Positions 18,651-55,300 of a DNA stretch of 64,000 nt are shown one piece after another (positions within the stretch are counted from its first letter, which is position 1; each line of letters begins with the position of its first letter). The stretch spans positions 201,115,112-201,179,111 of the forward strand of contig OX465281.1 in assembly GCA_949987705.1 (NCBI GenBank). Reading direction: 5' to 3'. The notes beneath the pieces are model-generated. The model worked only from the letters and a program-made list of their open reading frames with translations, was not told where the DNA came from and made no database searches. Position numbers and translations under genes: made by a program. Source of the DNA: Thereva unica. Taxonomy: Eukaryota; Arthropoda; Insecta; Diptera; Therevidae.

Positions 18651-19281
18651 ACTGGTCTGCACATTTTTTCTCCTTTCCAATTTAATAGTCGTATCCTAAG
18701 TATTTTTTCGCGCTGAATCCGAATCCGTTAACCAAATTGCCCTATCACGTCAGGATTTTGAGCAATCCTAACCTAAAAGTGCCAAAAAGCGTGTTTTTTG
18801 CACTTTTGCGCGTTAAATATCTCAAAACTATGGAATGATAGGGCAAATCGGACAACGGGATCGTTTTCAGCATGCCAAAATCTACAGAAAACCATGTCGA
18901 AAGCGTTAAATTTGAAAAAAACATTTTTTGTAATACTGAAAAGAAAAACTTCTTGGCGAGAAATCGACACATGATATCATCGTTGCACCGAAGTTTTTCT
19001 TTTTTTTTAAATTTAACGCTTTCGACATGGTTTTCTGTAGATTTTGGCATGCTGAAAACGATCCCGTTGTCCGATTTGCCCTATCACTCCATAGTTTTGA
19101 GATATTTAACGCGCAAAAGTGCAAAAAACACGCTTTTTGGCACTTTTAGGTTAGGATTGCTCAAAATCCTGACGTGATAGGGCAATTTGGTTAACGGATT
19201 CGGATTCAGCGCGAAAAAATACTTAGGATACGACTATTAAATTGGAAAGGAGAAAAAATGACCCGTTTTTTGCAGACCAGT
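18651..19281. repeat. 631-bp near-perfect palindrome nested in the Harbinger-like element
   Basis: Ends ACTGGTCTGCA and TGCAGACCAGT; arms of about 270 bp are almost identical inverted copies (shared blocks include TTAACGGATTCGGATTCAGC and CCTATCACGTCAGG on opposite strands), with a loop of about 85 nt. Open frames in the arms encode the same peptides on opposite strands and are not evidence of a gene. Confidence 0.85.
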
Positions 19282-20584: not shown

Positions 20585-21044
20585 TTGGGCCTCGGTAGTC
20601 TAGGGGTAAGGCGCCTGACTACTATCCCAGAGGTCCAGGGTTCGATTCCCGGCGGTGCCACGCTCCTAGCCTTTCCCAATTTCCCACCTACATAACTTTC
20701 TTTCTTTCTTCTTCCCTCTTTGCATTCCTGATTCCTTCTGTCATAGCCTTCACTAGTTCTTCCCCGCTCCACCAAGCGCATGTCATCGGTTGGTTGATGA
20801 GATTCAACTCGTTTCAGGAGGCATAACACTCCAGCCAGTTGTTCTCGATGCCCCGATGTCAGAGTCGCAAAATGGTTGGGAGTAGGTGAAATAAAATACC
20901 GCAGCTAGGTTGTGACAGTTCTTTCCTTCACTTTCTCTCTATCTTCCGACTAGAGCTGCTGTTCGACATTTCAAAAATAAAATACATGGTCGACAGTACA
21001 AAGGGGTCTTCCCTAAGTCTCTAGTGTGTCACATAAAAAAAAAC
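20585..21044 (+). mobile_element. tRNA-derived SINE, copy 1
   Basis: The head is tRNA-like, with an A-box (TAGTCTAGGGGTAAGG) and a B-box (GGTTCGATTCC), ending CGGCGGTGCCA. A unique body follows (CGCATGTCATCGG, GTTCTCGATGCCCCGATGTC) and the copy ends in a run of A (about 21031-21044). A second copy lies inverted at 30553-31022 and matches along its whole length, so this is a ~460-bp SINE and not a tRNA gene. Confidence 0.85.
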
Positions 21045-24187: not shown

Positions 24188-24333
24188 ACCGGTAGCAGGC
24201 CCTCCCTTTTTTTCGTTGATTATACAATTATATTGGCAGCAAGAGAAGATTTAGTTTTTTTAGATTATATATCAAGCCTCTCCATTCTGAAAAGAAGCTA
24301 ACAGGTGTCAAATCCTCAGCTTGTAGCCTCTTA
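24188..24333 (-). pseudogene. hAT transposase, piece 4
   Basis: The - strand reads KRLQAEDLTPVSFFSEWRGL then IYNLKK, and after a one-base slip in an A-run continues to SLAANIIV...STKKREGLL. The motif 'T(k)LQ.EdLTp..F..eW..l' is typical of the hAT catalytic region. It joins piece 3 in frame across the MITE when one TAA duplication is removed. Confidence 0.75.
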
Positions 24334-24570
24334 GGGTAAATTCAAAAACTCATCACTACCGCATCACTGCAGAATTCAGCTACAGACTTCAATTTGAAGT
24401 CTGTAGCTGAATTCTGCATTGATGCGGCAGTGATTAGTTTGGGTAAATTCAAAAACTCATCACTGCCGCATCACTGCAGAATTCAGCTACAGACTTCAAT
24501 TTGAAGTCTGGAGCTGAATTCTGCATTGATCAGTGATTAGTTTTTGAATTTACCCTTTTTGAATTTACCC
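24334..24570. mobile_element. PIF-type palindromic MITE with a second copy inserted in it
   Basis: Ends GGGTAAATTC...GAATTTACCC flanked by TTA (24331-24333, 24571-24573). A second ~115-bp copy of the same palindrome lies at 24441-24555, inserted near the right end of the first and flanked by TTT on both sides. The copies share CAGAATTCAGCTACAGAC and complement. A third copy is at 38462-38579 with ATA on both sides. The 3-bp duplications fit PIF/Harbinger mobilisation. Confidence 0.85.
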
Positions 24571-24712: not shown

Positions 24713-24715
24713 AAT

Positions 24716-24875
24716 AGGTGTGTTCGCATACTCGCCTGCGGGTTCCATCGGGCGCCAGAAAGCGCCCGAAACCGCCAGATTTCTGTTCGTTCCTACAAAA
24801 CAGAACAGAAATCTGGCGGTTTCGGGCGCTTTCTGGCGCCCGATGGAACCCGCAGGCGAGTACGCGAACACACCT
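24716..24875. mobile_element. 160-bp GC-rich perfect palindrome (MITE)
   Basis: Ends AGGTGTGTTCG and CGAACACACCT; arms of about 70 bp are essentially perfect inverted copies with high G+C (GGGCGCCAGAAAGCGCCCG) around a ~15-nt loop. Flanked by AAT on both sides (24713-24715, 24876-24878), although a TA duplication is also possible. The composition differs sharply from the AT-rich surroundings. Confidence 0.8.
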
Positions 24876-25358
24876 AATGTCTATGGTATACAAATAAAAG
24901 GAAAGATGTTCCATTTCATACAAGGAAAGTGTACACGATTCTATAAAAAGAGCTTTCCTTCCTCCATTTCAAGCTGCCTCCAGACGAAAAATGCCCCCGC
25001 TAATTCTTTGTTTTCTATGCCACTGTCAAGAGCTTTGAGTAAGTTTTATCTGAAGAGAGCAAAAGTAAATGGAGGCAAATGATAGCGATGGATGGGAGCA
25101 TGGTCGAGTTGTTTACGCTTGCGCTTTTGAAGTGAAAACTTCTTTAGCCGCGTTGGGCACTTTTTGATAGGGGAAAATGTTATGGGTTCGCGTCACCGAC
25201 ATGCTCATGACTGGCGCACGCGCTCAATCGATTATAATCAAAAACTTTTTGATTTTGAATAAAAAAATAAATCTGACCGCCTACTATTATTCAATTAAGT
25301 ATCGAAAATGAAAATATAAAACCAGTCATTTTGAACGTCACACTTCATTACTTCATAT

Positions 25359-25841
25359 ATGGACATACATACTAAATTCACTGGAAGCATTGGTGTTAAT
25401 GTTTCTGATATAGGCGAAATATGCGTTGCTCGTTGCAGTTCCGAGAATGGGCAATACGTATTAATGGTTGCCGTTTATATTTCGCCTGGAAAATCTATGA
25501 GACAGATACAACAATTTTTATTCGAAAATTTGATGATTTATACAAAAGAAGGTTCTGAAATTCTCGAAAAAAGATTCGGCGAAAAATATGATAATGTACC
25601 GATGATTTTAAGTGGAGACTTCAATATTAACTTTGCAGATGATAAAAATCTACCATTAATTGAATTTTTAAATGCAACACTTAATTTAAATATGTCCAAT
25701 GATCGGAAACTTAGTACTACCAAATATAAAACGACGATCGATGCGGTTTTTACGCGATACTTAGATAAATTTGAATCACATTTCATTTCTTACTTAATCA
25801 CATTTTCATTTCTTACTTTAGTTACCATAACCCGATTGTAA
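25359..25841 (+). pseudogene. Endonuclease (EEP fold) C-terminal fragment of a Helentron
   Basis: The frame contains VAVYISPGKSMRQIQQFLFE, MILSGDFNINFADDKNLPL (the GDFN motif) and TTIDAVFTRYLDKFESHF, i.e. the second half of an apurinic-type endonuclease/exonuclease/phosphatase domain; YHNPI further on corresponds to the final SDHxP-type motif. The N-terminal half, with the first catalytic residues, is missing, so it cannot be active. Helentrons are known to carry such a domain at the C-terminus of the Rep/helicase protein. Copies at 39380-39751 and 59597-59968 (- strand) encode the same segment. Confidence 0.7.
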
Positions 25842-25849
25842 GTGCTAAT

Positions 25850-26105
25850 GAAATAGGATGGTCAAAATTGCTACAATTATTACATAATTTAAAAAATAAT
25901 TCTGAGATATCGGTTGAAGATGCAGCAGCATTAAATTTTATAGAAAAAAGTACACTTATTAATTAAGACGCAGTTACTTGTGCTACATATTTTAATAAGT
26001 TGGTTAATGTCCTAATGAAAATACTGCAATCAAAAAGATTTAGTCCTTTCAAGAAATATAGAATTTTGTATTACTTCAAAGGAATCGAATTTCAACATCT
26101 AAGTT
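25850..26105 (+). pseudogene. Helitron Rep-type N-terminal domain fragment
   Basis: Reads LLQLLHNLKNNSEISVEDAA ... DAVTCATYFNKLVNVLMKIL ... YYFKRIEFQH, matching the Helitron-like N-terminal domain in which 'dPVTCArhF...vL......YfyriEFQ' precedes the HxH motif. It stops just before the catalytic HxH. It lies downstream of the endonuclease fragment, the reverse of the normal Rep-helicase-endonuclease order. One in-frame stop occurs in this copy where the other two have an open codon. Confidence 0.65.
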
Positions 26106-26460
26106 CGAAGTTTTCACTTCTATCGGCAGTCCCTATAACTGCCAATTTTTTTTTTTAAAGGTTTTGTTGTTTATGAAATATCGGCATACGACATACTATG
26201 TACATACGAATGTGTATATTTTTACTATATAGGTACATTTTCTTAAAGGGATAAAATTGTTGGTGGAAATCAATGAGATTTTGTCTAAATGATACAAATC
26301 TTTAGACTTTTGGAGGAAGTGGCAATTTTGTTTGTTTTTGTCCAACTTTTCGATTTGTTACATATTTTGCAAAGTTTAGTAAAACCGTTAGTTTTATGCG
26401 AATTTTGATTTCGTTTTGATTTGCAACCAATATTCCCGGAATATGTTTATTTGGCAGATT

Positions 26461-29400
26461 CTTCTTCTTCTTAAATGGCGCTACAGTCCTTGCAGGACTC
26501 GGGCCTCTTGAAGTCTCCTCCTCCAGTCTTCTCTACGTCTTGCTAGCTCTCTCCAGTGTTTGATATACGAAGTTTTCGTATGTCTTCTAGCACGTCATCC
26601 ATCCACCTATTTCTTGGTCGTCCTACTCTTCTTCTTCCAGATGGTCTTCCATTAAAAATCCTGGCTAGCATTCTTTCTTCTGGAGCCCGTAGAACGTGTC
26701 CAAGCCATCGCAGTCTGTTCAATCTTATGTATGTAGATATGTTTATGTCGTCATACATTTGTTGAAGTTCCTCATTTGTCCTAATGCGCCATTCGTTTTG
26801 GTTAACCCTTACAGCGCCAAATATTCTTCTTAAGATCTTCCTTTCGAAGATTTTAAGCTGGTTTTCTGTTTGTTGGGTCAATGTCCAAGCCTCAGACCCA
26901 TAGCATAGAACTGGGCGGATTAACGTTTTGTATAGTCTGATTTTGCATTGTCTTGAAATTTCTTTGTTTTTAAAGACCGGGACTAGTGCGAAATAGGTTT
27001 TATTTGCGGCTACGATGCGTCTATGGATGTCGTCCTTTATATGATTTTGTGCAGTAAGCATTGTCCCTAAGTAGATGAAGTTTTCTACAATTTCCACAAT
27101 ATGATCGCCAAGGCTGATACTTCGTCCTAGCCGATGTCCTTGTTTTGATACGATCATATATTTTGTTTTTGTGTCATTTACTCGTAGATTGAACTTTGCT
27201 GAGCTTTCTACAATCTTGAAAAAGGTTTCCTTTACCTCTTGTGCTTTGCGTCCAATTATGACTATATCATCTGCGAAGGCTAGTATCTGGATGTTCCTTG
27301 TGAAGATGCTATTTGCTCCATTAAGCTGCGTTTCTCTCATTATTGCTTCGAGAGCAATGTTAAAAAGTATTGGTGAGATTGCATCTCCTTGTCGCAGACC
27401 CGATTCTTGAGGAAAATTGGTTGAGTTACAACCTCGTATTCTCACTTGTGTTTCACAATTTTTGGTCGTCATCCTGCAGAGATCTATTAATTTTCTGGGG
27501 AAACCCATTTCAGCCATCTTATTCCACAACTCTCTTTTATTTAGCAGATCGTAAGCATTTCTATAGTCTATAAAAAGAAGATGTATATCAATGTTTTCTT
27601 CCCAGCATTTTTCAAGTATTTGTCTCATTATGAAAATCTGGTCTGTTGTCGATCTGTTCGTTCTAAATCCTGCTTGGTAATCACCTACTTTATCTTCCAA
27701 GTGTGGTTTCAGTCTATTAAATAAAATATGTGAAAACACTTTGTAAGCTGTGTTCAGAAGAGATATTGGTCTGTAGTTTTTGCAGCTCATCAATTCACCT
27801 TTTTTATGGACTGGGACTATTGTGCCTAAAAGCCATTCTTCTGGCATCTTGCTGCTTCTCCATAGTTTTATGATTAGACTATGTAAGGCCTGGCATAACT
27901 TCTCCCCACCATTTTTTAAGATTTCCGTGGGTATGCCATCTGGACCTGGAGCTTTGTGATTTTTTAGTTTCGCTATGGCATTTTCAACTTCCTCCATTGT
28001 AGGATCTGGCGTATCGTTTTCTGGGTCATCTGTATTACGGTTTTCCGCTGCTCCCTGTGTTAGGCTTATATTCTCTTTGAAGAAGTCTCTAAAGTATTTC
28101 TCCCACACCTCCAGTATGTCATCGATACTACTAGCTATAGTACCATCTTCTCTTCTTACCATGGTGCAGGTGGGTTTATATCCTTTCTTAATCATGTTGA
28201 CTTCTTTGTAGAAACTTCTAGTGTCTTTGTTACTGTAGCTTTGCTTGATCGCACTTATTCTAATTCTGAAGTAATCACGTTTTTTCTTCCTTAATAACTT
28301 ATTCGTGTCTCTTCGTGCTGCTACATATTTCTCATAGTTTCCTCTAGTCATTCTTGTTAGGTACACCTGTCTTGCATGGTTTTTTATTTCAATGCTGCTC
28401 TTGCATTGATTATCAAACCAATGTCTCCTTCTTTCGTGGTTTTGTGTGCCTAATACACAGTTGTTTGTTTCTATAATTTTTTCTTTTATAGAGTTCCACA
28501 TCAGGTTTAGATCAGTTTCCATTTCCAAACTCCTTGTTATTTGCTCAAGCTTTTCTGTTAACATAATTTCATACTGTTGTTTTGATTCTACATTTCTTAA
28601 TTTTTCTATATTCCACTTTATTTGTCTATCATTGTTTCTTCTATTTATTGTCGCTAGTTTTTTCGTCCTCATTTTCCCAACAACTAGATAGTGATCGGTG
28701 TCTACATTCGCTCCTCGGAAACTTCTAACATCCAGTATGCTGCTTCCATGCCTAGTGTCAACTAGAACATGGTCAATTTGGTTATGGTGCCTGCCATCTG
28801 GTGATGTCCATGTCCTTTTGTGTATATTCTTATGGTTAAACCAGGTGCTAGCTATTGACAAACTTCTTGCGATAGCAAATTCGGCCATTCTGTTCCCGTT
28901 ATCGTTTGAATCCTCGTGCAACGAGAACTTACCAGCGTAAGGATAATAATATGGTTCCTTACCTATTTTAGCATTGAAGTCCCCTAATACGATTTTCATG
29001 TCGTAAGAAGGGATTTGGTCATAGGTCACCCTAAGAGTTTCATAGAAGTCATCTTTTTCTTGTTCTGGTTTTTCTTCTGTAGGCGCGTGCACGGTGATGA
29101 ATGTTATATTATGAAATCTGGATTTGATTCTTAAGGTTGCGATCCGATCGTTAAGCGGGTTGAAGTCTATTACGTTGTTGATTAGAGGTTTAAGTACACA
29201 GAAACCCACCCCAAAGTTTCTTCTGGAGTCATTATTACCACTGTAGAATATCGTAGCGTCTTTTCGTTCTAGGACTCCTCTACCAGTCCACCTTAGTTCT
29301 TGTAGTCCTGCGATGAGTATTCTATATCGTCTTAGCTCATCTATCATTTCTGCCATTGCTCCGGGTCTATATAATGTTCTTACATTCCATGTTGCAAACT

Positions 29401-29682
29401 TAATATCGTTTTTCCTAAAATCATTAGTCCTGGGACGTTGCTGAGGTCTTTGCCGTAAATCCTGACTGTTCCGAGGCTGATTTCTCGATTCCATAACAAG
29501 AGTTGTTTTCTGAGGAGAGGTTGTCAACCTTTCGCCCAACCCCCGACCTGGAGGGCCGGATCCGTGAATTATACCCCAACGGATAGGGTGGCCCAGCTAT
29601 ACCCCCAGGCACTGGGTACGTCCGTCGTTAGTTGGTTATCCAGGAGGCACCAGCGAGGAGGTGACGGTACGATTTTGCCCCC
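26461..29682 (-). mobile_element. Full-length RTE-type LINE
   Basis: 3.2-kb element flanked by a perfect 13-bp target duplication TATTTGGCAGATT (26448-26460, 29683-29695). The 5' end (at 29682, - strand) starts with a G-run and GCAAAATCG; the 3' end carries a short GAA-repeat tail instead of a poly(A), as usual for RTE elements. The other arm of the palindrome has the empty site with one copy of the target (about 32692-32704), which confirms the boundaries. Confidence 0.92.
26543..29539 (-). CDS. RTE endonuclease-reverse transcriptase, intact 998 aa
   Basis: Single polyprotein for target-primed reverse transcription: an apurinic-type endonuclease nicks the target and the reverse transcriptase copies the RNA there. 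The endonuclease domain is at about residues 45-290, with ATWNVRTLYRPG at 49, LQELRW at 79, LGDFNAKIG at 185, QIDHVLVD at 254 and DTDHYLV at 280. The reverse transcriptase is at about 520-800, with KAPGPDGIP at 529, the finger motif NYRPISLL, FIDYRNAYD at 656, SGLRQGDAISP and the catalytic FADD at 755-758. The C-terminal tail is basic (GRRRVGRPRNRWMDDV). No stop or frame shift is present, so it may be competent. The first Met is used as start; a short overlapping frame upstream (29424-29612) belongs to the 5' leader. Clade assignment (RTE) is from domain order and 3' tail. Codon use is richer in G/C than the surrounding DNA. Confidence 0.9.
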   Translation of the reverse strand: MGERLTTSPQKTTLVMESRNQPRNSQDLRQRPQQRPRTNDFRKNDIKFATWNVRTLYRPGAMAEMIDELRRYRILIAGLQELRWTGRGVLERKDATIFYSGNNDSRRNFGVGFCVLKPLINNVIDFNPLNDRIATLRIKSRFHNITFITVHAPTEEKPEQEKDDFYETLRVTYDQIPSYDMKIVLGDFNAKIGKEPYYYPYAGKFSLHEDSNDNGNRMAEFAIARSLSIASTWFNHKNIHKRTWTSPDGRHHNQIDHVLVDTRHGSSILDVRSFRGANVDTDHYLVVGKMRTKKLATINRRNNDRQIKWNIEKLRNVESKQQYEIMLTEKLEQITRSLEMETDLNLMWNSIKEKIIETNNCVLGTQNHERRRHWFDNQCKSSIEIKNHARQVYLTRMTRGNYEKYVAARRDTNKLLRKKKRDYFRIRISAIKQSYSNKDTRSFYKEVNMIKKGYKPTCTMVRREDGTIASSIDDILEVWEKYFRDFFKENISLTQGAAENRNTDDPENDTPDPTMEEVENAIAKLKNHKAPGPDGIPTEILKNGGEKLCQALHSLIIKLWRSSKMPEEWLLGTIVPVHKKGELMSCKNYRPISLLNTAYKVFSHILFNRLKPHLEDKVGDYQAGFRTNRSTTDQIFIMRQILEKCWEENIDIHLLFIDYRNAYDLLNKRELWNKMAEMGFPRKLIDLCRMTTKNCETQVRIRGCNSTNFPQESGLRQGDAISPILFNIALEAIMRETQLNGANSIFTRNIQILAFADDIVIIGRKAQEVKETFFKIVESSAKFNLRVNDTKTKYMIVSKQGHRLGRSISLGDHIVEIVENFIYLGTMLTAQNHIKDDIHRRIVAANKTYFALVPVFKNKEISRQCKIRLYKTLIRPVLCYGSEAWTLTQQTENQLKIFERKILRRIFGAVRVNQNEWRIRTNEELQQMYDDINISTYIRLNRLRWLGHVLRAPEERMLARIFNGRPSGRRRVGRPRNRWMDDVLEDIRKLRISNTGES

Positions 29683-30552
29683 TATTTGGCAGATTAGGAA
29701 ATGTTTCATTGTGGTCGAATATCGAAGGGAATTATTGCCTTTTACAAGGATTTCAAGATGTAAAATAGCATCCACAAATTTAAAATTATGAAAAGTGGAA
29801 AATTATGCTTTATGGTTATTTATCGACATTCACTCGGATAGAGCATTAGGCGCGTTTTTTTTAAAGTGGTTTTCCAAAAATCGGCGCTACATCGCTGACA
29901 GGCATTTAGACTTCGTTGAGTAAATCCGACATAAGGTTACAATTTTTAAAGGCAATTATCCAATTTGCCATTCACGCTACTACTCCTAAGAATTTGTTGT
30001 ACTTTTCCTTTTAAGATTTGATAATTTTTTGCTTGGAATAGTTTTTAAATGAGCTCTTATCTTTAAATTGATGCGAATGCCACAAACAAAATTTTCGAAG
30101 AAGAATGAGAATCAAATAATCTAGGATTTGTTTGTGGGGAATTGGGGATGGTAACATTCATTTTCTTTAGTTTACCAGTGTGAAAAATGAGAGTTTTTGC
30201 TTATTTTATCCGTATAAAGTTCAATTATTTTGTTTTTTAAACCCTTTATTTCAGATTTCTGAACAAGTTAGGATTCTTTTCCGTTACTCCGAGAGAGCTA
30301 AAGCAATTGTTTGAAGCCTGATCTGAGGTTAGACTTCGGATTTTAAGACCTAGCTCACAACAGTTTTCTAAATTCGACTAATACTTTACTGTTAATTGAC
30401 TGATAAACCAGCAAAAAAACTAATAACAAATTTCCAAATAGCAAATAAACCCCGGACCATAAAGAAAGAAACATACTTTTCATTTTCTTTATTTCTGTAG
30501 TCACCTGTTAACTCTCCTCTAATATTAATTTCATCGAATAACAACACAGCTT

Positions 30553-31022
30553 TGTTTTTTGTTATGTGAAATGCTAGAATCTCAGGAAAGGTCCTTTGTA
30601 CTGTGTCGACAATCTATTTTCTTCATATAGACTGCAATGTCGAACAGAAACTCTACTCCTGGAAGGAAGGAATTGCCCCAACCTACCCGCCATATTTTTT
30701 AGTCCACCTACTCCCAACCAGTACTGTCGCGACTTTGACATCGGGGAATTGAGAAACAACTCGCTGGGGTGTTATGCTTCCTGAAACGAGTTAAATCTCA
30801 TAAACCAACGGATGACATGCGCTTTGGTGGAGCGGGGAAGGGCTAAGGAAGGCTATGACAAGAGGAATCAGAAATGTAAAGAGGGAAGAAGAAGAAATAA
30901 GGAAAGTTATGAAGGTAGGAAAGTGGAAAAGGCGAAGGGCCATGGGGCTGGCCGGGATTCGAACCCGGGACCTCTGGGATGGTAGCCAGGCGCCTTATTC
31001 CCTAGGCTATCGAGGACCTTAT
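30553..31022 (-). mobile_element. tRNA-derived SINE, copy 2
   Basis: Inverted copy of the SINE at 20585. The tRNA-like head lies at about 30940-31022 (GGTTCGAATCCCGG B-box on the - strand). The body shares CGCATGTCATCCG and CCCGATGTCAAAG, and the copy ends in an A-run (T-run on +) at about 30553. The divergence between the two copies is substantial, so the family is not freshly active at these sites. Confidence 0.85.
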
Positions 31023-31486
31023 TTCTACATCCCGATGTGAAACAATCTCCTCAAGGTTTTCTTTAACCCTGTTATTAAAACCAGGTTGAATATTGCGAAC
31101 GATGCAAAAGCTAAGAGATAGTAAATTTATGTTTAAATTATCTTTAAATACTTGTAGGTTGTAGCAGGTTGCAAAAAGTAAGTTTTCGAATTCTTACTCA
31201 CATATGGCGAGGAGGCAATTAAAGACTTTTAACTATTCTACTGAGATAGTCATTTCGACACATCCTCTTTATAGGTTCACCTTCTTAGCTCTATATTCTT
31301 TGCTGCAGCTCTTCAACTTTTCCTAAGTTTTTTATATTTACTTAATAAATTTTTATATTTTGAGCGGTATAAATTTACCGATTTCGCCGATTTTAGTCAA
31401 AATGAACAGGACAATTCCATTTCGACAGAAGCAAATGAGGGATTTAGCTAAATCTGTGAGAGTTACATAAGGATTTGTTATTTTAT

Positions 31487-31731
31487 TTGAGTTTTCATAA
31501 AACCATAACTGGAATACTACAGTCATCGGTTAAATAGCTTTCTGTCGACTTCTCTTCAGAGAAGGTAATAAATGGAGTTTTGTTACTTTCAGTCCCAGAT
31601 GGAACTCCAAGGTTTAAAGTCAGAGTACTACCGTCATCGGTTAAATAACTTACTGTCGACTTGTCGTCAGAGATGATAATAACAGGAGCTTTATTATTTT
31701 CATTCCTTGAAGGAATTCCTTTTTCTTTGCA
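31487..31731 (-). other. Open frame with two 37-residue tandem repeats
   Basis: The - strand frame, open for about 80 codons without a Met start, contains two tandem units of exactly 111 bp (31609-31719 and 31498-31608). They begin GIPSRNENNKAPVI and GVPSGTESNKTPFI and both contain KST.SYLTDD. The units are diverged but keep frame and the SYLTDD core. Not recognised. It could be a relic of a protein encoded by the palindromic element. Confidence 0.4.
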
Positions 31732-32552
31732 AATGAGCTGCTAGCAAAATGAGATGCTAGCAAGTTGAGCAAACATATGAAACTTTCTTTAAGGGAGTAT
31801 CTTGCAAAGAACAAGTGTAGCCTAGCCACTTCTTATGTATAGCAGTCTTTCGCAGGGAATTTAAAGAGTTTAAGCTCTGCATTTGTTCTCTTCTTTGCTT
31901 TGCAAGAGGGTAACCCACAAATTACACCCCATTTCAAGGGTTTTTCCATTTGTAATAATAAATAATAAATTACCTAAATATCAGAAACACTGGATGTCAA
32001 TAACAAAGCTAACAAACCAAACCAAAACAACTCGCAAACAGGAAATCAACACTAGATCAAATCAAATAATATATATACTAAATAATCAAATATGTATTAT
32101 AATAAATAATAGCAAAACTTTATTTCCAAAAACTGCAGAGAACTGAGCTGAACACTATCATAATTACTTTTTAAATGACTTAATTCCTAAAAAAAAACTT
32201 TTTAAGCAATCGTAAGAAATACATACATACATCGAAAAACATAAAGAATCTCTGAAACAATTCCTTAATTTAAAATCTTTACCTAGAATAAAATATTTTA
32301 TAATAAAACCTGAAAAAAAACGCAAACGCAAATAGCTCGATTATGGTTATATCCATGGCAATCATTTTTCTTTTCCTTTATATAAATAAAATGTAAGTGT
32401 GCACTTTTCTGTTCCGTTTCCACCATTTAGGTTTTCTCCAGGCGAAAGCCGATCAATAGAACATCATAATAAAGATCGAAAAAAATCCAAGTTTTATTTA
32501 TTTTTATAAAGCCATTAGATAGAATTGTTATATTGGCTGCACTATTAAGTGA

Positions 32553-33224
32553 GAATGTCGATAAATAACCATAAAGCATAATTTTCTACTTTTCATATTT
32601 TTAAATTTGTTGATGCTATTTTACATCTTGAAATCCTTGTAAAAGGCAATAATTCCCTTCGATCTTCGACCACAATGAAACATTTCCCAATCTGCCAAAT
32701 AAACATATTCCGAGAATGTTGGTTGCAAATTAAAACGAAATCAAAATTCGCATAAAACTAACAGTTTTACTAAATTTTGCAAAATATGTAACAAATCGAA
32801 AAGTTGGACAAAAAAAACAAAATTGTCACTTCCTCCAAAAGTGTAAAGATTTTTATTATTTAAACAAAATCTCATTGATTTCCACCAACAATTTTATCCC
32901 TTTAAGAATTTGTACCTACATAGTAAAAATATACACATTCGTATGTACATATGTATGTCGTATGTCGATATTTCATAAACAACAAACCTTTAAAAAAAGC
33001 GCAAGCGTAAACAACTCGACCATGCTCCCATCCATCGCTATCATTTGCCTTTTGCTCTCTTCAGATAAAAATTACTCAAAGCTCTTGACAGTGGCATAGA
33101 AAACAAAGAATTAGCGGGGGCATTTTTCGTCTGGAGGCAGCTTGAAATGGAGGAAATAGGAAAGCTCTTTTTATAGAATCGTGTACACTTTCCTTGTATG
33201 AAATGGAACATCTTTCCTTTTATT
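32553..33224. repeat. Uninterrupted right arm of the 8.3-kb palindrome
   Basis: Inverted copy of the left arm without the RTE and Helentron-like insertions. The RTE target is single at about 32692-32704 and the Helentron site is an uninterrupted A-run at about 32990-33000. Substitutions and small indels against the left arm show the arms are not freshly duplicated. Confidence 0.85.
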
Positions 33225-33232
33225 TGTCTATG

Positions 33233-39041: not shown

Positions 39042-39353
39042 TCAAATTGGCGGCAGACATAATAGAATAAAAAAATTGGCAGTTATAGGGACTGCCGATA
39101 GAAGTGAAAACTTAGAACTTAGATGTTGAAATTCGATTCTTTTGAAGTAATACAAAATTCTATATTTCTTGAAAGGACTAAATCTTTTTGATTGCAGTAT
39201 TTTCATTAGGACATTAACCAACTTATTAAAATATGTAGCACAAGTAACTGCGTCTTCATTAATAAGTGTACTTTTTTCTATAAAATTTAATGCTGCTGCA
39301 TCTTCAACCGATATCTCAGAATTATTTTTTAAATTATGTAATAATTGTAGCAA
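39042..39353 (-). pseudogene. Rep N-terminal fragment in Helentron copy 2
   Basis: 103-codon frame containing EDAVTCATYFNKLVNVLMKI and YYFKRIEFQH; it reads through the element end into the flank. In this copy the codon that is a stop in copy 1 is open. Confidence 0.6.
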
Positions 39354-40133
39354 TTTTGGCCATCCTATTTCATTAGCACTTATTGTAAAAAAGATACAAT
39401 CGGGTTATGGTAACTAAAGTAAGAAATGAAAATGTTTGATTCAAATTTATCTAAGTATCGCGTAAAAACCGCATCGATCGTCGTTTTATATTTGGTAGTA
39501 CTAAGTTTCCGATCATTGGACATATTTAAATTAAGTGTTGCATTTAAAAATTCAATTAATGGTAGATTTTTATCATCTGCAAAGTTAATATTGAAGTCTC
39601 CACTTAAAATCATCGGTACATTATCATATTTTTCGCCGAATCTTTTTTCGAGAATTTCAGAACCTTCTTTTGTATAAATCATCAAATTTTCGAATAAAAA
39701 TTGTTGTATCTGTCTCATAGATTTTCCAGGCGAAATATAAACGGCAACCATTAATATGTATTGCCCATTCTCGGAACTGCAACGAGCAACGCATATTTCG
39801 CCTATATCAGAAACATTAACACCATGCTTCTAGTGAATTTAGTATGTATTTTTCTTTTGTTATCGTCTGAAGACATCTTCAGGATCAAGGATCCAAACAA
39901 ATTTGGAAAACAGATATTTAACACATCAGTCAAAATGACTGGTTTTATATTTTCATTTTCGATACTTAATTGAATAATAGTAGGCGGTCAGATTTATTTT
40001 TTTATTCAAAATCAAAGTTTTTGATTATAATCGATTGAGCGCGTGCGCCAGTCATGAGCATGTCGGTGACGCGAACCCATAACATTTTCCCCTATCAATA
40101 AGTGCCCAACGCGGCTAAAGAAGTTTTCACTTC
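39076..40133 (-). mobile_element. Helentron-like element, copy 2
   Basis: Inverted relative to copy 1. Ends TTGGCAGTTATAGGGACTGC (3' hairpin end) and AAGTTTTCACTTC (5' end), inserted between an A-run unit and further array sequence. Carries the same endonuclease and Rep fragments (39380-39751 and 39042-39353, - strand). Essentially identical to copy 3 at 59293, so the two moved recently from a common source. Confidence 0.8.
39380..39751 (-). pseudogene. Endonuclease fragment in Helentron copy 2
   Basis: The 123-codon frame carries ILSGDFNINFADDKN, TTIDAVFTRYLDKFES and ISYFSYHNPI, the C-terminal half of the EEP endonuclease fold. Identical in sequence to the frame in copy 3. Lacks the N-terminal catalytic residues. 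Confidence 0.65.
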
Positions 40134-40815
40134 AAAAAGTACAAAATATAACCTATCAACTTGAAATTTTGCAATTAAGATGGCGGTTCCAAGATGGCGG
40201 CTGAATTTTGGAATATGTTTCTCGACCCCCAATATGGGTATCAAATGAAAGAGTATGGCAAATAAATTAAAATTAGTAGTGTGGCGTCGTCAATTCCAAA
40301 TGGCAGCCAACCCAAAATAGCGGAGAACCTTTTTCTTTACAAGCTGCTCGGTATGGGTATCAAATCAAAGGGTATGACAACTGAGTGGAATATTATTAGC
40401 TGTTTGGGGTCATTCCAAATTCAAAATGACGACAAACACAAAATGGCGTATTACCTTTCTCTTTACAAGCTAGTCGGTATAGGTATCAAACGAAAGAGTG
40501 TGATATGTATGTAGAATACTGTTATCTGTGTAGAGTCATTCCAAATTCCAAATGGCGGCCAACAAAAAATGGCGGATTACCTTTCTCTTTACAAACTATT
40601 CGGTACGGGTATCAAATGAAAGGGTGTGACAAGTAGCATTCTATTATCTGTGTCGCGTCATTCCTAATTCAAATGGCAGCCAATACCAAATGGTGGTTTA
40701 CCTTTTCCTTTACAACACCCTGGGTGTAGGTATCAAATAAAAGTGCATGACGAGTATATTAAAGTAACATGTGTGACGTGATTTTAAATCAAATATGGCG
40801 GTCACCACAAAATGG

Positions 40816-41567: not shown

Positions 41568-41763
41568 TGTTGTGTCCTTTCCCGAATCTCGATATCCTAG
41601 ATAAGTTGTAAATTTATAAGAAAAACGTTACCTTGGTATTACACAACTTTATTCTTCTTTTTCTTCTATACAACTGACATTTTTGACATATTATGGTTGA
41701 GTGCACACTTCCATTGATACAATAGTATTAAAGTTGAGTGCACACTTCCATTGATACACTACA
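41568..41763 (-). repeat. 3' LTR of gypsy element 1
   Basis: 196 bp, identical by eye to the 5' LTR at 46031-46226. Contains an internal direct repeat (GTGCACACTTCCATTGATAC twice). Confidence 0.93.
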
Positions 41764-41782
41764 GTCTCCCACACTTAAACTA

Positions 41783-44700
41783 CTAGTACTGCAGGTAGTC
41801 CTGCAGGTATCTTGGCGGTTGCCGACTTCGTACACTTCTGGACTCCCGAGCGTTGGACTGCTGAACTTCAGATTGTTGGTTGTTCGGTTGCTGATTACTT
41901 CCTTCAGTTCCTGATGTTCGTCTCGGTAATGGCGCTGGAGCCGGATCTTCGTAGAATTGTATTTCCATCCCTTCTATTCCTGAACTCTTTCTTTGATCCG
42001 GTGGTTCTTTGACAACATCTGGTTCCTTCCTAGGGGGAACACCCGAATCGTATAGTTGATTAATATGACGCTTTAGTACATAACCATTATCCAATTCAAC
42101 CAAATAATGGAGATAACCAAATTTTCTCTTAATAGTACCAAATCTCCATGTAGGTTTGTCCTTTGTATACCATCTTGCTTGCACTCGGTCTCCCACACTT
42201 AATTTCCTAACTGGTAAGGTGTCATTCTTTGAAGTTCTCTGTTTTCTTATCGGGCGTAAAGCATCTAGTTTTATTCTCATTTCTCTTCCTAAATATTGTT
42301 GAGCTGGACTCTTCCCATTTGATAATGGTGTAGCCCTGTATCGGTACAGAATTTCACGGACCTTGGTATATATTGACGATGAATCTTCCGACATGCTATT
42401 TAACTTTGCTTTTAATGTTTTGATGTGCCTTTCTGCCAGGCCATTTGTTGCAGGGTGACCCGGTGCTATAAATTTTTGTAATATACCATTTTCTGTACAA
42501 AATGATTTGAATCGGCTACTTTGAAAAATTGTCGCGTTATCCGATACGAGGACTTCTGGCATGCCATGAGCTGCGAAAATATCCTGTAATAGTGTTATAG
42601 TTGATTCCGAAGTAGGTGCTGTTTTTTGAATTTTTACTTCTGGCCATTTTGATCTTGCATCGACTACTACTAAAAAATAATAATTTTGAAAAGGTCCTGC
42701 GTAATCAATGTGAATTCTTTCGAAATTTTCTTTTGGATCATCCCAATGGTGCGTAACGATTTTCGGAGGACTATTTTTAACCATAGCACATTGTTCGCAT
42801 GCCTTCACCAGTTTTTCTATGTCCGAATCGATCCCTTTCCAGTAACAGTATTTCCGTGCGAGCTGCTTCATCCGAACTATTCCTATGTGAGTGTAGTGTA
42901 ATTCATTTAATATCTCTTTTTGCATTTTTTTCGGAATGACCACGCGGTTTTTCTTTAGGATAACACCTTCTTGCATTGAGAATGCTGGATCTGTATTTTG
43001 ACCGTCTATTAATTCTTGTTTTACTTTTGACAGCTCCGAATCCTTCTCTATCTCTTGAGCTATAGTTGTAGCTGTGATTGCATGTGTTGAAATATGGTTG
43101 ATAATTTGGTTTTGAATATCTGTAATTTCATCTTCTATTGAATTCGATTTTTGAACTAGGTTTGGTATTGATGCTCTGGATAAACAATCGACGTGTATAT
43201 TCTCTTCTGCTTTCCTGTGTTGAATCCTATAATTGAATTCTTGAAGGAAACATGCGTATCTTAAGAGTCTGGCTGATGTCATCGCTGGAATTTTGGAATG
43301 CTCGTGAAATATTCGAGTAAGTGGCTTGTTGTCGGTGATAAGAGTGAATTCTCTTCCATAGAGATACATATAAAATTTACCAATCGCAAACACAATAGCT
43401 AAAGCTTCACGGTCCAATTGACTATAGTTTTGCTCTGCTGAAGTCAATGATCTTGAAATGAACGCAATTGGACGTTCGTTATTATTTACAGTGTGTGCTA
43501 ATACTGCTGCGATTCCTGTTGGGCTTGCGTCGCATGTTAATGTGACTGGAATCTCTGGGTTGTACGGAATCAGAATGCGGTCACTTGAGATTTCATTTCT
43601 AAGTTTGTTGAATGCTGCTTCACTATTTCTTGACCACTGAAACTTTACATCTTTTTGTAATAGTTGTCTTAATGGGAATGTTATAGTTGATAAATTTGGT
43701 ATAAATCGAGAATAGTATGTGGTCATTCCCAGAAATTTTCGTAGTTCATCTACATTCTTTGGGCGGGGCATATTTCTGACCGCTGTAACTTTTTCAGGAC
43801 ATTTAGAAATTTTATTCTTGCTTATCAAGTATCCTATGTACTTTATTTCCTTTTTGAGAAATTCGCATTTATTTTTGTTTACATGTAGATCGTGCTTTAA
43901 TAATCTTTCGAGGCATTCAATTAGGCGCCTTGTACATTCTTCAATTGAACTCCCATAAATGATGATATCATCGAAATATGAAATTGTACCTTCTAGTCCT
44001 TGCAAAATTTGGTCCAATATTCTGTTGAATTCACTTGGTGCCGTTTTAATTCCAAATGACAATCTGTTTATTTGATATGTACCTCGATGTGTTGAAATGG
44101 TTTGAATCTGTTTACTTTCCTCATTTACTTGTACGTGTAAATAAGCTTTGTATAAGTCAAGACGACAAAAATATGTTGCGTCACGTAGGTTATTTAATAT
44201 TTCGTCAATTCGTTTGATCGGATAATGTGACGATTCTAACTGTCGATTGACTCCCACTTTGTAATCTACACACAGCCTTACATTCCCGTCCGGTTTCGGT
44301 ATCACAACTAATGGTGATCCCCAATCACTGGTATTAACTTTAGAAATGATTCCACTTTCCTCTAATTTATTGAGTTCATCTTCTACTTTTTCACGTAAGG
44401 CATACGGCACTTCACGTTCTTTTATAAAAATTGGTTTTGCACCTGGCCTTAACTTCAAAACGCATTTAATATCTGGAATGCATCCAACTTCTGCTTGAAA
44501 AATTGTTTTGTATTTTTCCATAATCTTTGGCAATGAATCGACGGCGTTGGACTTCTCATAGCTTGTAGTGTTAACATCTATTTCTTGTAAACTAATTTTT
44601 AAATGTCTAATCCATACTCGACCCAATAACGGAGTATAATGGGGTGGTACGAGGTATAAAGTTTCGTATGATTTTTTTCCTTGATACTGGACAAGAACTT

Positions 44701-45949
44701 CTACTTTTCCTACGGGGTCAAAGATTTCTCCCGTATACGCTCGGAATCTTACATCCGGTTTTTTAACTGGAATATTCAGATTTAACTTATTGAAGTCCTT
44801 TTCTGATAATAGTGTATACCCTGATCCCGAATCAACTTCAAACTCTTGTGGTTTCCCGTTAAGTAGAACTTCTATGAAAAATTTACTTCCATCTATTTCA
44901 GGTACCTCCGTTTTCTCATATATGTCCACAATTTTGTTTATATTATGAAATTCGTTCTTCGCATCTTCTAAAATTTCATGGGTTACATATGTGTCTTCAA
45001 TATTGGATTTGATTCTAGTGTTCTCTAATAGTCTTTTTACACAAACCGTTCTAACATGTCCTTTTTTCTTGCAATGCTGACAGTTCAGTTGATTTTTATT
45101 TGTTCTACATTCAGGCGCTAAATGATTACCTTTGCCACAATGTAGACATAGACCTTCGATACCCAGTTCTCTGTAATTTATCTGGTTGTTTGAATTACGA
45201 TTTTTGAAAAACTTTTGATTTGCTTTGGTATTTGATTTATAATTGAACTTTGGTTTTTTCCTGCCGAAATTTGTTGATTTTATTTTATTTATTTCTATGC
45301 TAGATGGGCCCGCTTTAGCTATTTCTCTGCTGTCTAACTTTGATACTTCGTAATTTATCGCTTTCTTTACAATGTCATTGAAATTTAGTTCTTCTTCTTG
45401 AAGAAGTTTTTCTCGAATCGAATTGTCTTTTATTCCTCGTATGAACTGAGCACGTAAGAAATTATCAGCAATTGATCGGCCACAACTGCACTTAAAGTCA
45501 CTATCTAATACCCTTTCTCGTAGTTTTGCTACGTATTCATTAATATTTTCGTCTTCCTTTTGAAATTCCGATAAGAAGTGATGCTGTTCTACCAATGGAT
45601 TCTTTTTCGGGCAATAATGACTTTCTAATAAAGTGATGATCTCTGTATAAGTTAATTCACTAACCTTTTTTGGTGCTGCCAAAGAAGTTACCAAGGCGTA
45701 ATTTGTTGAACCTACGTTTTGTAGCAATAGTTTTGCACACGTTGCTTTATCATCAAAAATCTGTTTTACTTGGAAATATATTTCCAGCCTTTCCTTATAA
45801 TTTTTGAAGTTCTCCGTTTTAGGATTGAAGGCTTCAAATTGCGTAATTATGTTAAGGTTGGCAAAACCTTGACGTTGCTGTTGCCTTTCTAATGCAGTCG
45901 CCATGTTGGTCATCGCTGCTATCATCATTTCGAATTGATTCGGTTCCAT
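41783..45949 (-). CDS. Gag-Pol polyprotein of gypsy element 1, intact 1388 aa
   Basis: Encodes capsid, protease, reverse transcriptase, RNase H and integrase in one frame. Gag region about 1-310 ends in two CCHC zinc knuckles (about 268-281, CLHCGKGNHLAPEC, and 290-303, CQHCKKKGHVRTVC). The protease motif DSGSG is at about 373. The reverse transcriptase is at about 500-690, with RLDLYKAYLHV and the catalytic YFDDI at about 658. RNase H is at about 795-910 (TCDASPTG, TDNKPL). The integrase has an HHCC finger at about 1019-1053 and the D,D,E core near 1082 (HIDYAGPF), 1137 (VSDNATIF) and 1173 (GLAERHIK). The single gag-pol frame with two knuckles fits Mag-like members. No stops or shifts; start chosen as the first Met after the leader. 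Confidence 0.92.
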   Translation of the reverse strand: MEPNQFEMMIAAMTNMATALERQQQRQGFANLNIITQFEAFNPKTENFKNYKERLEIYFQVKQIFDDKATCAKLLLQNVGSTNYALVTSLAAPKKVSELTYTEIITLLESHYCPKKNPLVEQHHFLSEFQKEDENINEYVAKLRERVLDSDFKCSCGRSIADNFLRAQFIRGIKDNSIREKLLQEEELNFNDIVKKAINYEVSKLDSREIAKAGPSSIEINKIKSTNFGRKKPKFNYKSNTKANQKFFKNRNSNNQINYRELGIEGLCLHCGKGNHLAPECRTNKNQLNCQHCKKKGHVRTVCVKRLLENTRIKSNIEDTYVTHEILEDAKNEFHNINKIVDIYEKTEVPEIDGSKFFIEVLLNGKPQEFEVDSGSGYTLLSEKDFNKLNLNIPVKKPDVRFRAYTGEIFDPVGKVEVLVQYQGKKSYETLYLVPPHYTPLLGRVWIRHLKISLQEIDVNTTSYEKSNAVDSLPKIMEKYKTIFQAEVGCIPDIKCVLKLRPGAKPIFIKEREVPYALREKVEDELNKLEESGIISKVNTSDWGSPLVVIPKPDGNVRLCVDYKVGVNRQLESSHYPIKRIDEILNNLRDATYFCRLDLYKAYLHVQVNEESKQIQTISTHRGTYQINRLSFGIKTAPSEFNRILDQILQGLEGTISYFDDIIIYGSSIEECTRRLIECLERLLKHDLHVNKNKCEFLKKEIKYIGYLISKNKISKCPEKVTAVRNMPRPKNVDELRKFLGMTTYYSRFIPNLSTITFPLRQLLQKDVKFQWSRNSEAAFNKLRNEISSDRILIPYNPEIPVTLTCDASPTGIAAVLAHTVNNNERPIAFISRSLTSAEQNYSQLDREALAIVFAIGKFYMYLYGREFTLITDNKPLTRIFHEHSKIPAMTSARLLRYACFLQEFNYRIQHRKAEENIHVDCLSRASIPNLVQKSNSIEDEITDIQNQIINHISTHAITATTIAQEIEKDSELSKVKQELIDGQNTDPAFSMQEGVILKKNRVVIPKKMQKEILNELHYTHIGIVRMKQLARKYCYWKGIDSDIEKLVKACEQCAMVKNSPPKIVTHHWDDPKENFERIHIDYAGPFQNYYFLVVVDARSKWPEVKIQKTAPTSESTITLLQDIFAAHGMPEVLVSDNATIFQSSRFKSFCTENGILQKFIAPGHPATNGLAERHIKTLKAKLNSMSEDSSSIYTKVREILYRYRATPLSNGKSPAQQYLGREMRIKLDALRPIRKQRTSKNDTLPVRKLSVGDRVQARWYTKDKPTWRFGTIKRKFGYLHYLVELDNGYVLKRHINQLYDSGVPPRKEPDVVKEPPDQRKSSGIEGMEIQFYEDPAPAPLPRRTSGTEGSNQQPNNQQSEVQQSNARESRSVRSRQPPRYLQDYLQY

Positions 45950-46030
45950 TTTTCCTTATTTTTTTTTTCCTTGATTGTGTTGAATGAGGAAATTATTTGC
46001 TGTTCTTTCTTTATCCTTGTCGCCAATTAC

Positions 46031-46226
46031 TGTTGTGTCCTTTCCCGAATCTCGATATCCTAGATAAGTTGTAAATTTATAAGAAAAACGTTACCTTGGT
46101 ATTACACAACTTTATTCTTCTTTTTCTTCTATACAACTGACATTTTTGACATATTATGGTTGAGTGCACACTTCCATTGATACAATAGTATTAAAGTTGA
46201 GTGCACACTTCCATTGATACACTACA
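46031..46226 (-). repeat. 5' LTR of gypsy element 1
   Basis: 196 bp; on the - strand it begins TGTAGTGTATC and ends GACACAACA. Promoter and polyadenylation signals were not individually resolved. Confidence 0.93.
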
Positions 46227-52011: not shown

Positions 52012-52331
52012 TGTCGCTGTCTGGTTGTTACTCCGTGTCACAACCATAGGCGAGCGGAAGAGAAATAAAAGTCCGTAATTATTTGGATGTTAATTAATCT
52101 TTTATTTCTAAATTTATATTTTTATTTTTATTCTTTATTTGTCAAATGTTCATTTATTTCTTTTAATTGTTCTCGATCGATTGAATTCATTCGCAGCGCA
52201 ATCTCGATTGAATGAGCTATCGAAATGTAGTAGTAAATGTCGTAGCAGCAAGTAGTTGTTTCTGCTACTAATCCGGTCAAGTTGCGGATGTTTCGGATTA
52301 TTTCCAATAGATGCTGGGAAAGACTGCCACA
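52012..52331 (-). repeat. 3' LTR of gypsy element 2
   Basis: 320 bp, identical by eye to 56436-56755. Preceded on the - strand by the purine-rich GAAGGGGGTAGC tract. Confidence 0.93.
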
Positions 52332-52350
52332 GCTACCCCCTTCTTAATAA

Positions 52351-55300
52351 TCAGGTCGTAGGAGGCTCTTGAAAGGAGACTGATTTTCTTTTGTTGACAT
52401 ATGTCTTCAATTTTCCAGTATTGGAGCTGGATAACCATTGGTTTTGTTCGTCTATTATGGTAGGTGTCTTCTCTCGTGATGAGCTGTCCGTTGAAGGTCC
52501 TGGGCTATCTTCGATGGCGGTATAAGCTGGCTTTAATCTCTCGGTTGAGACTGTGGTTTCTTTTTCGCCTATCTTAATTAAAAAATTATTGTCATTAATT
52601 CTTTTTAATACCTTGTAGGGTCCAGAATATGGTGGTTCTAATGGTTTCTTTACAGCATCTGTTCTCAGGAAAACATGGGTACAATCTTCTAAATGTTTAT
52701 GTTTGAACAAGCGACGATTGTTGTGATTTGCTGTTGGTAGTGGTTTGATTGCTCGCATATGTTCTCTGAACTTCTCGATGAATATTTGCGGATCAATGCA
52801 GGTGTCTATATCGGTGAAAAATTCTCCTGGAACTCTAAGTGGTGATCCAAATAAGAATTCGGCAGCCGAAGCATTTATGTCTTCCTTATAGCATGTCCGA
52901 AGTCCTAAAAGTACCGTGGGCAGGAGGTCCAGCCACGAAATCCCTGAGTGACACATCAAGGCGGATTTAAATGAACGGTGCCACCTCTCAATAAGTCCAT
53001 TCGATGCAGGGTGGTATGGTGAAGTGCGAATTCTTCTAGATCCTAGCATATTAGTGAGAGATTTAAATAGTTCTGACTCAAATTGTGTCCCTTGATCGGT
53101 AGTGATAGTCTTTGGTGTTCCAAATCTTGCGACCCAATTTGAATAAAATGCGGTTGCAATCGTGTCGGCGGTTATGTCCTTAAGCGGAACTGCTTCAGGC
53201 CATCTTGAGAAACGGTCGATTATAGTTAAACAGTAACGAAATCCCTGGATTAGTGGTAAAATCACAATATCCATATGGACGTGGTCGAATCGATGATCGG
53301 GTAATTCAAATGGCGTTATGGCATTTTTCTGGTGTCGTTGTATCTTTGCCTTTTGACAGGAAATGCATCTACGTGACCATTCTATTATATCGCTCCTCAT
53401 CTGTGGCCAAACGTACTTTTGTCTTATTTGTTTTGAAGTAGCTTTTCCGTTTGGGTGTGATAATCCATGTATGGAGCTAAATATACGATACCTTAAGGAT
53501 TGAGGAATATATGGGCGTATCGTTCCAGTTTCTGTATCACAGTAAACTGAACAGTCTTCCTTGAATGATAATTTTTGAAGTTTCAATGAGGTTGATCCCT
53601 TTAACAATTCCTTCAACTCTTCGTCTCTCTGTTGTTCGGTTTGTAGTTCTTCCGGTTCCACCACTGTCGGCGTAGTGATCATGCTTATACGTGAAAGTGC
53701 GTCTGCTACCGTGTTGTCTTTACCTGGAATATAAACAATATCTGTGGAAAATTGTGAGATCCAATCTAATTGTCGCAATTGACGAGGTGAGGCTTTCTCT
53801 GGTTTCTGCGCGAATGCGTGCGTTAATGGTAAATGGTCGGTTTTGATTACGAAAGTTCGGGCTTCAAGTATATGTCGAAAAAATTTGATTGAAGCGAAAA
53901 CAGCCAGAAGTTCTCTATCATATGTAGAATATCTTTGTTCTGTTGGGCTCATCTTTCGTGAAAAATAACCAAGTGGTCTCCATTCTCCTTTATCTTGTTG
54001 TTCCAGTACACCACCAATTGCTGTATCTGACGCATCGGTTGTGAGTGCAAGTGGTTTGTTCTGACCCAGATGTGCCAGTTGGACTGCATCACATAAACTC
54101 ATCCTACAAGCTTCGAAGGCTTCTTCAATTTTGTCTGACCAAACTACTGGACGTTTATCATTCTTTTTTGAGTTCTTGAGTAGTTCGTTAAGTGGGGCTT
54201 GTAACTGAGCTGCATGTGGTATACATCTTCGGAAGTAATTTAGAACGCCTAGGAATCGGCGAAGTTCTGCAACGGTTTGCGGCTTAGGATAATTCTTTAT
54301 CGCCGAGATACGCTCGGCAGGTGGTTTACAGCCGTCCTTGTTTATGACGTAACCCAAGTAGGTCACTTCGCTTGCTCCGAAGATGCACTTATTCAAGTTG
54401 ATGTGCAAGTTTGCATCGTGAAGTCGCTTGAAAACTTCTTCCAGGTGTTGACCATGTTCAACTGCATCAGCGGACATGACCAGGATGTCATCGATGTAAC
54501 AGCAAACATAATCCAGATCGCGAAAAATGCTGTCCATATAGCGTTGAAAGGACTGTGTTGCGTTCCTTAAACCGAATGGCATTACTACAAATTCAAACAA
54601 CCCAAACGGTGTGCTAATTGCCGTCTTTGGGATATGTTCTTCGGCCATTGGTATTTGGTAGTAAGCACGAACTAAATCAATTGTTGAAAAAATTTCCTTA
54701 CCATATAGTCTCTCATTGAAGTCAGTGATGTAGGCTATGGGGTAACGGTCTGGAATCGTTTGGGCATTCAGTTTCCTGTAATCCCCGCAAAGCCTCCAAC
54801 CACCGGTTTTCTTCGGAACCATATGAATTGGGCTTGACCACGAGCTGCTTGATGGTCGAATAACTCCTCCATCTAACAAGGATTCAATTTCATTTTTGGC
54901 CGTTAGAAGTTTCTCTCCAGATAGTCGACGTGGCCGTTCTGCTAATGGTCGACCTGTTGTAAAAATTTTGTGTGGCGGTGCCTTACTTGTCGACGGAGCA
55001 ACTTTAACCATTGGTAAAGTGATGCTGCGGTAATTATTTAAAATATTTTGATATTCAAAATTGTTGTCTACGGTTGTAATCGCGTAGATGGTTGTCGGTC
55101 CCAACTCTCCTTGTCTGGACAGCGCTGTGGTGCTATCCACGAGTCGCTGGTTCTTCAAATCTACAAGAAGTCCAAAATTGGTTAAAAAGTCAGCTCCAAT
55201 AATTGGTACCTGGGTTTGGGCAATAATAAATACCCACTTATATGATCTTCTCAAACCTAGGTTCAACTCCATGCGATGTACACCATAAGTGTCGATGATT

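What the first reader, a model, noticed from the sequence alone, without database searches (positions are those of the whole stretch)
24886..33224. 8.3-kb palindromic element keeping empty sites for two insertions in its other arm
The left arm contains a full RTE LINE (13-bp duplication) and a Helentron-like element; the right arm is the same sequence inverted with a single RTE target and an uninterrupted homopolymer. The palindrome therefore predates both insertions, and the arms have not been homogenised by gene conversion since. It is flanked by an 8-bp direct repeat, consistent with mobility as a unit.
Basis: seen in the sequence. Interest (0 to 1): 0.8.

Follow-up and report, generated by a model that had tools for sequence, protein, structure and literature searches.

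The report
Decayed P-type transposon with nested insertions
This looks like the remains of a cut-and-paste jumping gene with long mirror-image ends, into which other jumping genes later inserted on one side only; it is a tidy fossil record of successive insertions, but of a known kind.

Summary
The locus is not an 8.3-kb palindrome. It is a transposon with terminal inverted repeats of about 0.68 kb (690 aligned columns, 21 substitutions, 6 indels) around a 2.7-kb spacer. The left arm was enlarged by a Helentron-like insertion (25129-26145) and an RTE LINE (26461-29682, 13-bp duplication). The right arm keeps both empty sites. The rest of the gene seems deleted, and a SINE-like unit interrupts it. 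Best reading: a dead, internally deleted P element of Galileo-like architecture. The 8-bp direct repeat exists, but its right copy overlaps the inverted repeat by 6 nt, so it is not a clean target duplication. Partial homogenisation of the outer arm is possible (2/233 against 19/457 substitutions, p = 0.018). No second copy could be sought in the genome: that search did not complete in 21 tries. New member of a known kind.

The parts
24887..33230 (.). whole long-TIR element as found, nested insertions included (inverted similarity from 24887 to 33230; the uninterrupted inverted match begins CAAATAAAAGG at 24891 and 33226)
24887..25128 (+). left TIR, outer block (2 substitutions and 2 indels against the right arm)
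25129..26145 (+). non-autonomous Helentron-like insertion: 14-bp subterminal inverted repeats, 3' hairpin, T-run target, fragment of an endonuclease-like ORF
   Evidence: Exo_endo_phos_2 E 0.004, below cut-off; two other copies at 39069-40138 and 59286-60355
26146..26460 (+). left TIR, middle block (14 substitutions in 308 columns); its last 13 bp are one copy of the RTE target duplication
26461..29682 (-). RTE-type LINE with an open frame of 1017 aa (endonuclease + reverse transcriptase)
29683..29831 (+). left TIR, inner block (5 substitutions in 149 columns); its first 13 bp are the second copy of the RTE target duplication
30249..30377 (-). transposase remnant, RNase H N-terminal domain, second part (LTSDQASNN)
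   Evidence: PF21787 E 0.025 alone, profile 108-130
30395..30550 (-). transposase remnant, RNase H N-terminal domain, first part (LLFDEINI, FMVRGLFAIWKF), another frame
   Evidence: PF21787 E 4.7e-4 within the open frame 30395-30613, 6.6e-4 alone; 9.5e-8 when read together with the piece 30249-30377
30554..31018 (-). SINE-like unit with a tRNA-like head inside the transposase region; relative at 20587-21044 (+)
   Evidence: ARAGORN reports a tRNA-like only in the relative; no target duplication established
31021..31193 (-). possible transposase remnant before the SINE-like unit (NIQPGFNNRVKENLEE)
   Evidence: read by eye; no Pfam match
31698..31949 (-). transposase remnant, N-terminal THAP domain broken by two frame changes
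   Evidence: PF05485 E 3.1e-7 when read across; pieces alone gave no match
32553..33230 (-). right TIR, uninterrupted; empty RTE target 32689-32701, empty Helentron-like site (run of seven) 32992-32998
24878..24885 (+). left copy of TGTCTATG (right copy next row)
33225..33232 (+). right copy of TGTCTATG; overlaps the right TIR by 6 nt

Best explanation
A dead, internally deleted cut-and-paste DNA transposon of the P-element superfamily with Galileo-like long terminal inverted repeats (about 0.68 kb each). When active, a THAP-domain transposase made by intact relatives would have bound the ends, cut the element out and inserted it elsewhere with a short (7-8 bp) target duplication (inferred from the family, not shown here). 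This copy's own transposase gene, on the minus strand, keeps the THAP domain and part of the RNase H domain (shown), is frameshifted (shown), and has too little sequence left for the third catalytic residue (inferred). The arms then drifted apart. A Helentron-like element entered a T-run in the left arm, an RTE LINE entered the same arm, and a SINE-like unit entered the transposase region. The right arm was spared and so shows the pre-insertion sequence at the first two sites (shown). The order among the three nested insertions is not known.
For: Arms and empty sites. Transposase: PF21787 from two separate pieces in different frames at consecutive profile positions, 63-91 (E 6.6e-4) and 108-130 (E 0.025), and 9.5e-8 when read together. 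THAP PF05485 3.1e-7, above the curated cut-off. Of 10 of the 27 possible frame combinations scanned, THAP passes its cut-off in 2 (both with the chosen frames for the first two segments), is weak (E 0.032) in 1 and absent in 7. Order on the minus strand is THAP, then RNase H. The two aspartates that I align by eye to catalytic positions (codons at 30535 and 30323) are about 71 codons apart, against 87 residues in zebrafish THAP9 (D347, D434); about 160 codons remain before the left TIR, against 245 residues from D434 to E679 there (passage). Galileo precedent: TIRs of 765/757 bp, duplications of 7 or 8 bp, 33 of 191 copies with other elements inside (passages, section).
Against: No clean target duplication: the exact 8-mer overlaps the right TIR, and the alternative TCTATGGTATA/TCTATGCTAATA next to the CAAAT ends is imperfect, was noticed after the fact and is too long for this family (4 of 3000 random pairs score as high). 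No second copy was seen: none in this window at E 1e-5; the genome search did not complete. The read-through frames were chosen by me; the THAP pieces alone give no match, the single-frame scan of the whole spacer gave PF21787 only at E 0.012 and no THAP, and unrelated families also appear at E 0.002-0.04 among the single pieces, so one single-piece match would mean little. Searches for protein relatives found none. Sequence comparison with solved structures gave no P-transposase match and only weak THAP matches, E 0.078 and 0.26.
Confidence: 0.82

Rival explanations
1. A Foldback-like or other long-TIR element (not P) into which a P-type transposase remnant was later inserted or captured.
For: No clean P-type target duplication at the ends; Foldback-like elements also have very long inverted repeats (passage on Galileo's likeness to them).
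Against: The remnant is spread over much of the spacer in gene order, and no inverted repeat of 25 nt or more lies wholly inside the spacer, as a separately inserted TIR element might show. The arms hold no direct-repeat family at the threshold used, while tandem repeats in the arms mark Foldback (recalled). Galileo shows that this mix is one kind of element.
Confidence: 0.1
2. A chimeric copy made by ectopic recombination between two inverted copies, as at Galileo inversion breakpoints; this would explain the mismatched flanks and the uneven arm divergence, and the locus would be a rearrangement breakpoint.
For: No matching target duplication; outer block 2/233 against 19/457 substitutions (p 0.018). 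Galileo copies at inversion breakpoints are chimeric with exchanged duplications (passages).
Against: No second breakpoint or relative was at hand. Mismatched flanks can also come from decay or from the hairpin element beside the left end (24715-24876). The divergence contrast rests on 2 substitutions in the outer block.
Confidence: 0.12
3. Assembly artefact (false inverted join).
For: No raw reads were available to check.
Against: The arms differ by 21 substitutions, 6 indels and two large insertions with intact target structure; a false join of one sequence would give near-identical arms. The spacer holds what a transposon should hold.
Confidence: 0.02

Closest known systems
Galileo (P superfamily, Drosophila; PMC4168063 passages and one section, PMC2775673 passages)
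   Same: Long TIRs of similar length (765/757 bp in the nearly complete D. willistoni copy), P-type transposase between them, mostly defective copies, nested insertions of other elements.
   Different: No nucleotide or protein comparison with Galileo could be run; no GTANTAC-type duplication seen at the ends; host here unnamed.
Canonical P element and zebrafish Pdre2 (PMC7776569, PMC10983969; passages)
   Same: THAP plus RNase H transposase between terminal inverted repeats; 8-bp duplications expected.
   Different: Their TIRs are 31 bp and 13 bp; here about 0.68 kb. No clean 8-bp duplication here.
Helentron-associated elements, HINE/DINE-1 (PMC4067079, passages), for one nested insertion
   Same: Subterminal inverted repeats of 12-15 bp, 3' palindrome, T-rich target.
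   Different: Carries a fragment of an endonuclease-like ORF (weak Pfam match); no Rep/helicase seen.

Membership tests
P-element superfamily | transposase with THAP domain and TNP-like RNase H domain | tested here: met
   PF05485 3.1e-7 and PF21787 9.5e-8 in read-through; PF21787 also in single pieces. The C-terminal half is missing.
P-element superfamily | terminal inverted repeats bracketing the transposase gene | tested here: met
P-element superfamily | 7-8-bp target-site duplication abutting the TIR ends | tested here: inconclusive
   exact 8-mer overlaps the right TIR by 6 nt; the alternative is imperfect
Galileo | TIRs of several hundred bp or more | tested here: met
   about 0.68 kb, against 765/757 bp
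Galileo | transposase groups with Galileo; conserved terminal 40 bp; GTANTAC-like target | not tested
   no Galileo sequence was at hand; protein searches gave no relatives
Foldback | inverted repeats built of short tandem repeats (recalled) | tested here: not met
   at minimum length 25 and seed 14, direct-repeat families only at 24331-24530 and 31512-31719, outside the arms
Helentron/HINE (nested insertion) | 12-15-bp subterminal inverted repeats, 3' hairpin, T-rich insertion site | tested here: met
   GAAGTGAAAACTTC and its exact inverse in this copy; the two other copies match 13 of 14 bases of the 3' repeat; hairpin and T-run in 3 of 3 copies; criteria
RTE LINE (nested insertion) | single ORF with endonuclease and reverse transcriptase, target duplication | tested here: met
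   the clade name RTE is recalled, no tree was made

The most novel reading that the evidence does not exclude
A Galileo-type, long-TIR P-superfamily lineage living outside Drosophila, whose arms exchange sequence only where both are uninterrupted: the nested Helentron-like element would have acted as a barrier that confined gene conversion to the outer 240 bp, making the locus a natural test of how insertions block arm homogenisation.
Probability: 0.2. Interest if true: 0.5.

Novelty: new member of a known kind. Interest (0 to 1): 0.27.

Why it matters
The spared right arm orders the layers inside one locus without outgroup sequence: the P-type element first, then the Helentron-like and RTE insertions. 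Long-TIR P elements caused chromosomal inversions in Drosophila (PMC2775673, passages), so a relative in another genome would be worth checking at rearrangement breakpoints. Otherwise this is ordinary nested-transposon history in repeat-rich, insect-type DNA.

Tried and rejected
Palindrome as such: rejected, a 2.7-kb spacer separates the arms. TA-type (Tc1/mariner) ends: the inverted match includes a TA at both outer ends, but the spacer encodes a P-type protein. Foldback: no direct-repeat family in the arms at the threshold used. Polinton/Maverick (also long TIRs): no protein of that kind among the six frames of the spacer in Pfam.

Protein relatives of the transposase: none by region search of a single-frame read-through (49 candidates, none at E 0.01 or better) nor by a 96-aa piece. 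Solved structures: searches gave no P-transposase match; the THAP read-through matched two THAP-type chains weakly (E 0.078, 0.26).

Other copies: none in viral contigs (one exact 30-mer) or genome contigs (one exact 26-mer); these collections are not expected to hold insect DNA. The RTE protein found no relatives in viral contigs, but 516 proteins, best 120 listed, in the protein collection (residues 590-900 as query): best an unnamed 559-aa protein at 91%; named ones include Drosophila willistoni 45%, Aedes albopictus 46%, Aphis glycines 43%, and one record labelled Pantoea (a bacterium; probably contamination). Rfam: no match in the window.

Literature searches, seen as listings with the starts of abstracts; 71 was too broad to be useful. 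No listing showed a long-TIR P element outside Drosophila, but these few searches do not establish absence from print.

Full report
Observation. The inverted arms are real. Three aligned blocks, split by two insertions in the left arm, give 690 columns with 21 substitutions and 6 indels. Inverted similarity runs from 24887 and 33230 at the outer ends to 29831 and 32553 at the inner ends. Between them lies a spacer of 2721 nt that is not palindromic, so the locus is a transposon with long terminal inverted repeats rather than an 8.3-kb palindrome.

Insertions. The RTE-type LINE occupies 26461-29682 on the minus strand and has a 1017-aa open frame with endonuclease and reverse transcriptase domains. 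It is flanked by a 13-bp duplication. The 13-mer occurs exactly three times in the window: the two flanks and, inverted, the single empty target in the right arm. The other insertion (25129-26145) begins with GAAGTGAAAACTTC, carries the exact inverse of that repeat near its 3' end, then a GGCAGT/ACTGCC hairpin, and sits in a T-run. Two further copies lie in this window (39069-40138, 59286-60355), with the same hairpin, 13 of 14 bases of the 3' repeat, and T-runs. These are the structural marks given for Helentron-associated elements in PMC4067079 (passages). Its ORF resembles an endonuclease only weakly in Pfam (E 0.004, below cut-off). In the right arm the corresponding place is an uninterrupted run of seven.

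What the element is. The spacer holds a broken transposase on the minus strand. One open piece (30395-30613) matches Pfam TNP-like_RNaseH_N at E 4.7e-4, profile 63-91; unrelated families reached E 0.002-0.04 with other pieces in the same call, so this alone would be weak. An adjacent piece in another frame (30249-30377) matches the next part of the same profile, 108-130, at E 0.025. Read together with an X at the frame change they reach 9.5e-8, above the curated cut-off. Upstream in gene order, 31949-31698 read across two frame changes matches the THAP domain at 3.1e-7, above its cut-off; its pieces alone match nothing, and the plain single-frame scan of the spacer found no THAP. As a control I scanned 10 of the 27 frame combinations: THAP passed its cut-off in 2, both with the chosen frames for the first two segments, was weak in 1 and absent in 7. 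A SINE-like unit with a tRNA-like head (30554-31018) lies between the two domains. Its relative at 20587-21044 is 77% identical by BLAST over 481 columns, or 75 substitutions in 464 aligned columns plus 21 indels.

THAP followed by a TNP-like RNase H domain is the make-up of P-superfamily transposases (PMC7776569 and PMC10983969, passages). By eye, two aspartates fit the first two catalytic positions. About 160 codons remain downstream, against 245 residues between the second and third in zebrafish THAP9, so the copy is best read as internally deleted as well as frameshifted. Introns were not considered.

Ends and mobility. If the element starts at CAAAT on both sides, an imperfect repeat TCTATGGTATA / TCTATGCTAATA abuts both ends (4 of 3000 random pairs score as high); this was noticed after the fact and is longer than P-type duplications. 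I do not regard a target duplication as shown. A hairpin element (24715-24876) beside the left end may have disturbed that flank. No other copy of the arms is in the window at E 1e-5. The search of the window's own genome did not complete in 21 tries.

Arm history. The outer block differs at 2 of 233 columns, the mid and inner blocks at 19 of 457 (Fisher p = 0.018). The block limit was set by the insertion site, not chosen to fit, but the numbers are small. Conversion confined to the outer block, constraint on the ends of a source element, or a chimeric copy could each explain it. That the arms have not been homogenised since the insertions holds for the insertions themselves; it is not established for the outer 240 bp. 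The Helentron-like copy differs from the one at 39 kb at 16 of 994 columns, which include a replaced stretch; this is only a rough hint that it is younger than the arm divergence.

Comparison. The nearest described kind is Galileo: P superfamily, TIRs of 765/757 bp in the nearly complete D. willistoni copy, duplications of 7 or 8 bp, many defective copies, nested insertions in 33 of 191 copies (PMC4168063, passages and one section). A Galileo-bearing inversion breakpoint also carries a LINE-like insertion with 13-bp duplications (PMC2775673, passage). Most named relatives of the RTE protein in the listed rows are of insects, at 38-46% identity, so the host is probably an insect.

Verdict. New member of a known kind.

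Noticed in passing
192-1784: A 1.6-kb sequence that is 95.7% its own reverse complement, a true near-perfect palindrome.
   Followed up: no
24715-24876: Compact hairpin (arms of 74 nt, 99% complementary) beside the left end of the P-type element.
   Followed up: partly
41568-46226 and 52012-56755: Two LTR-type elements with identical direct repeats (196 and 320 bp, 100%) around long open frames (1390 aa; 1078 and 336 aa), suggesting recent insertion.
   Followed up: no
39069-40138 and 59286-60355: Two Helentron-like copies that differ at 1 of 1058 columns, so very recent activity; the copy in the P-type element is a different variant.
   Followed up: partly
31512-31719: A 97-nt unit repeated after 111 nt (81% identical) in a stretch that stays open on the minus strand, just after the THAP remnant; possibly an internal repeat of the transposase.
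   Followed up: no
18662-19260: Another self-complementary stretch of 0.6 kb (89%).
   Followed up: no
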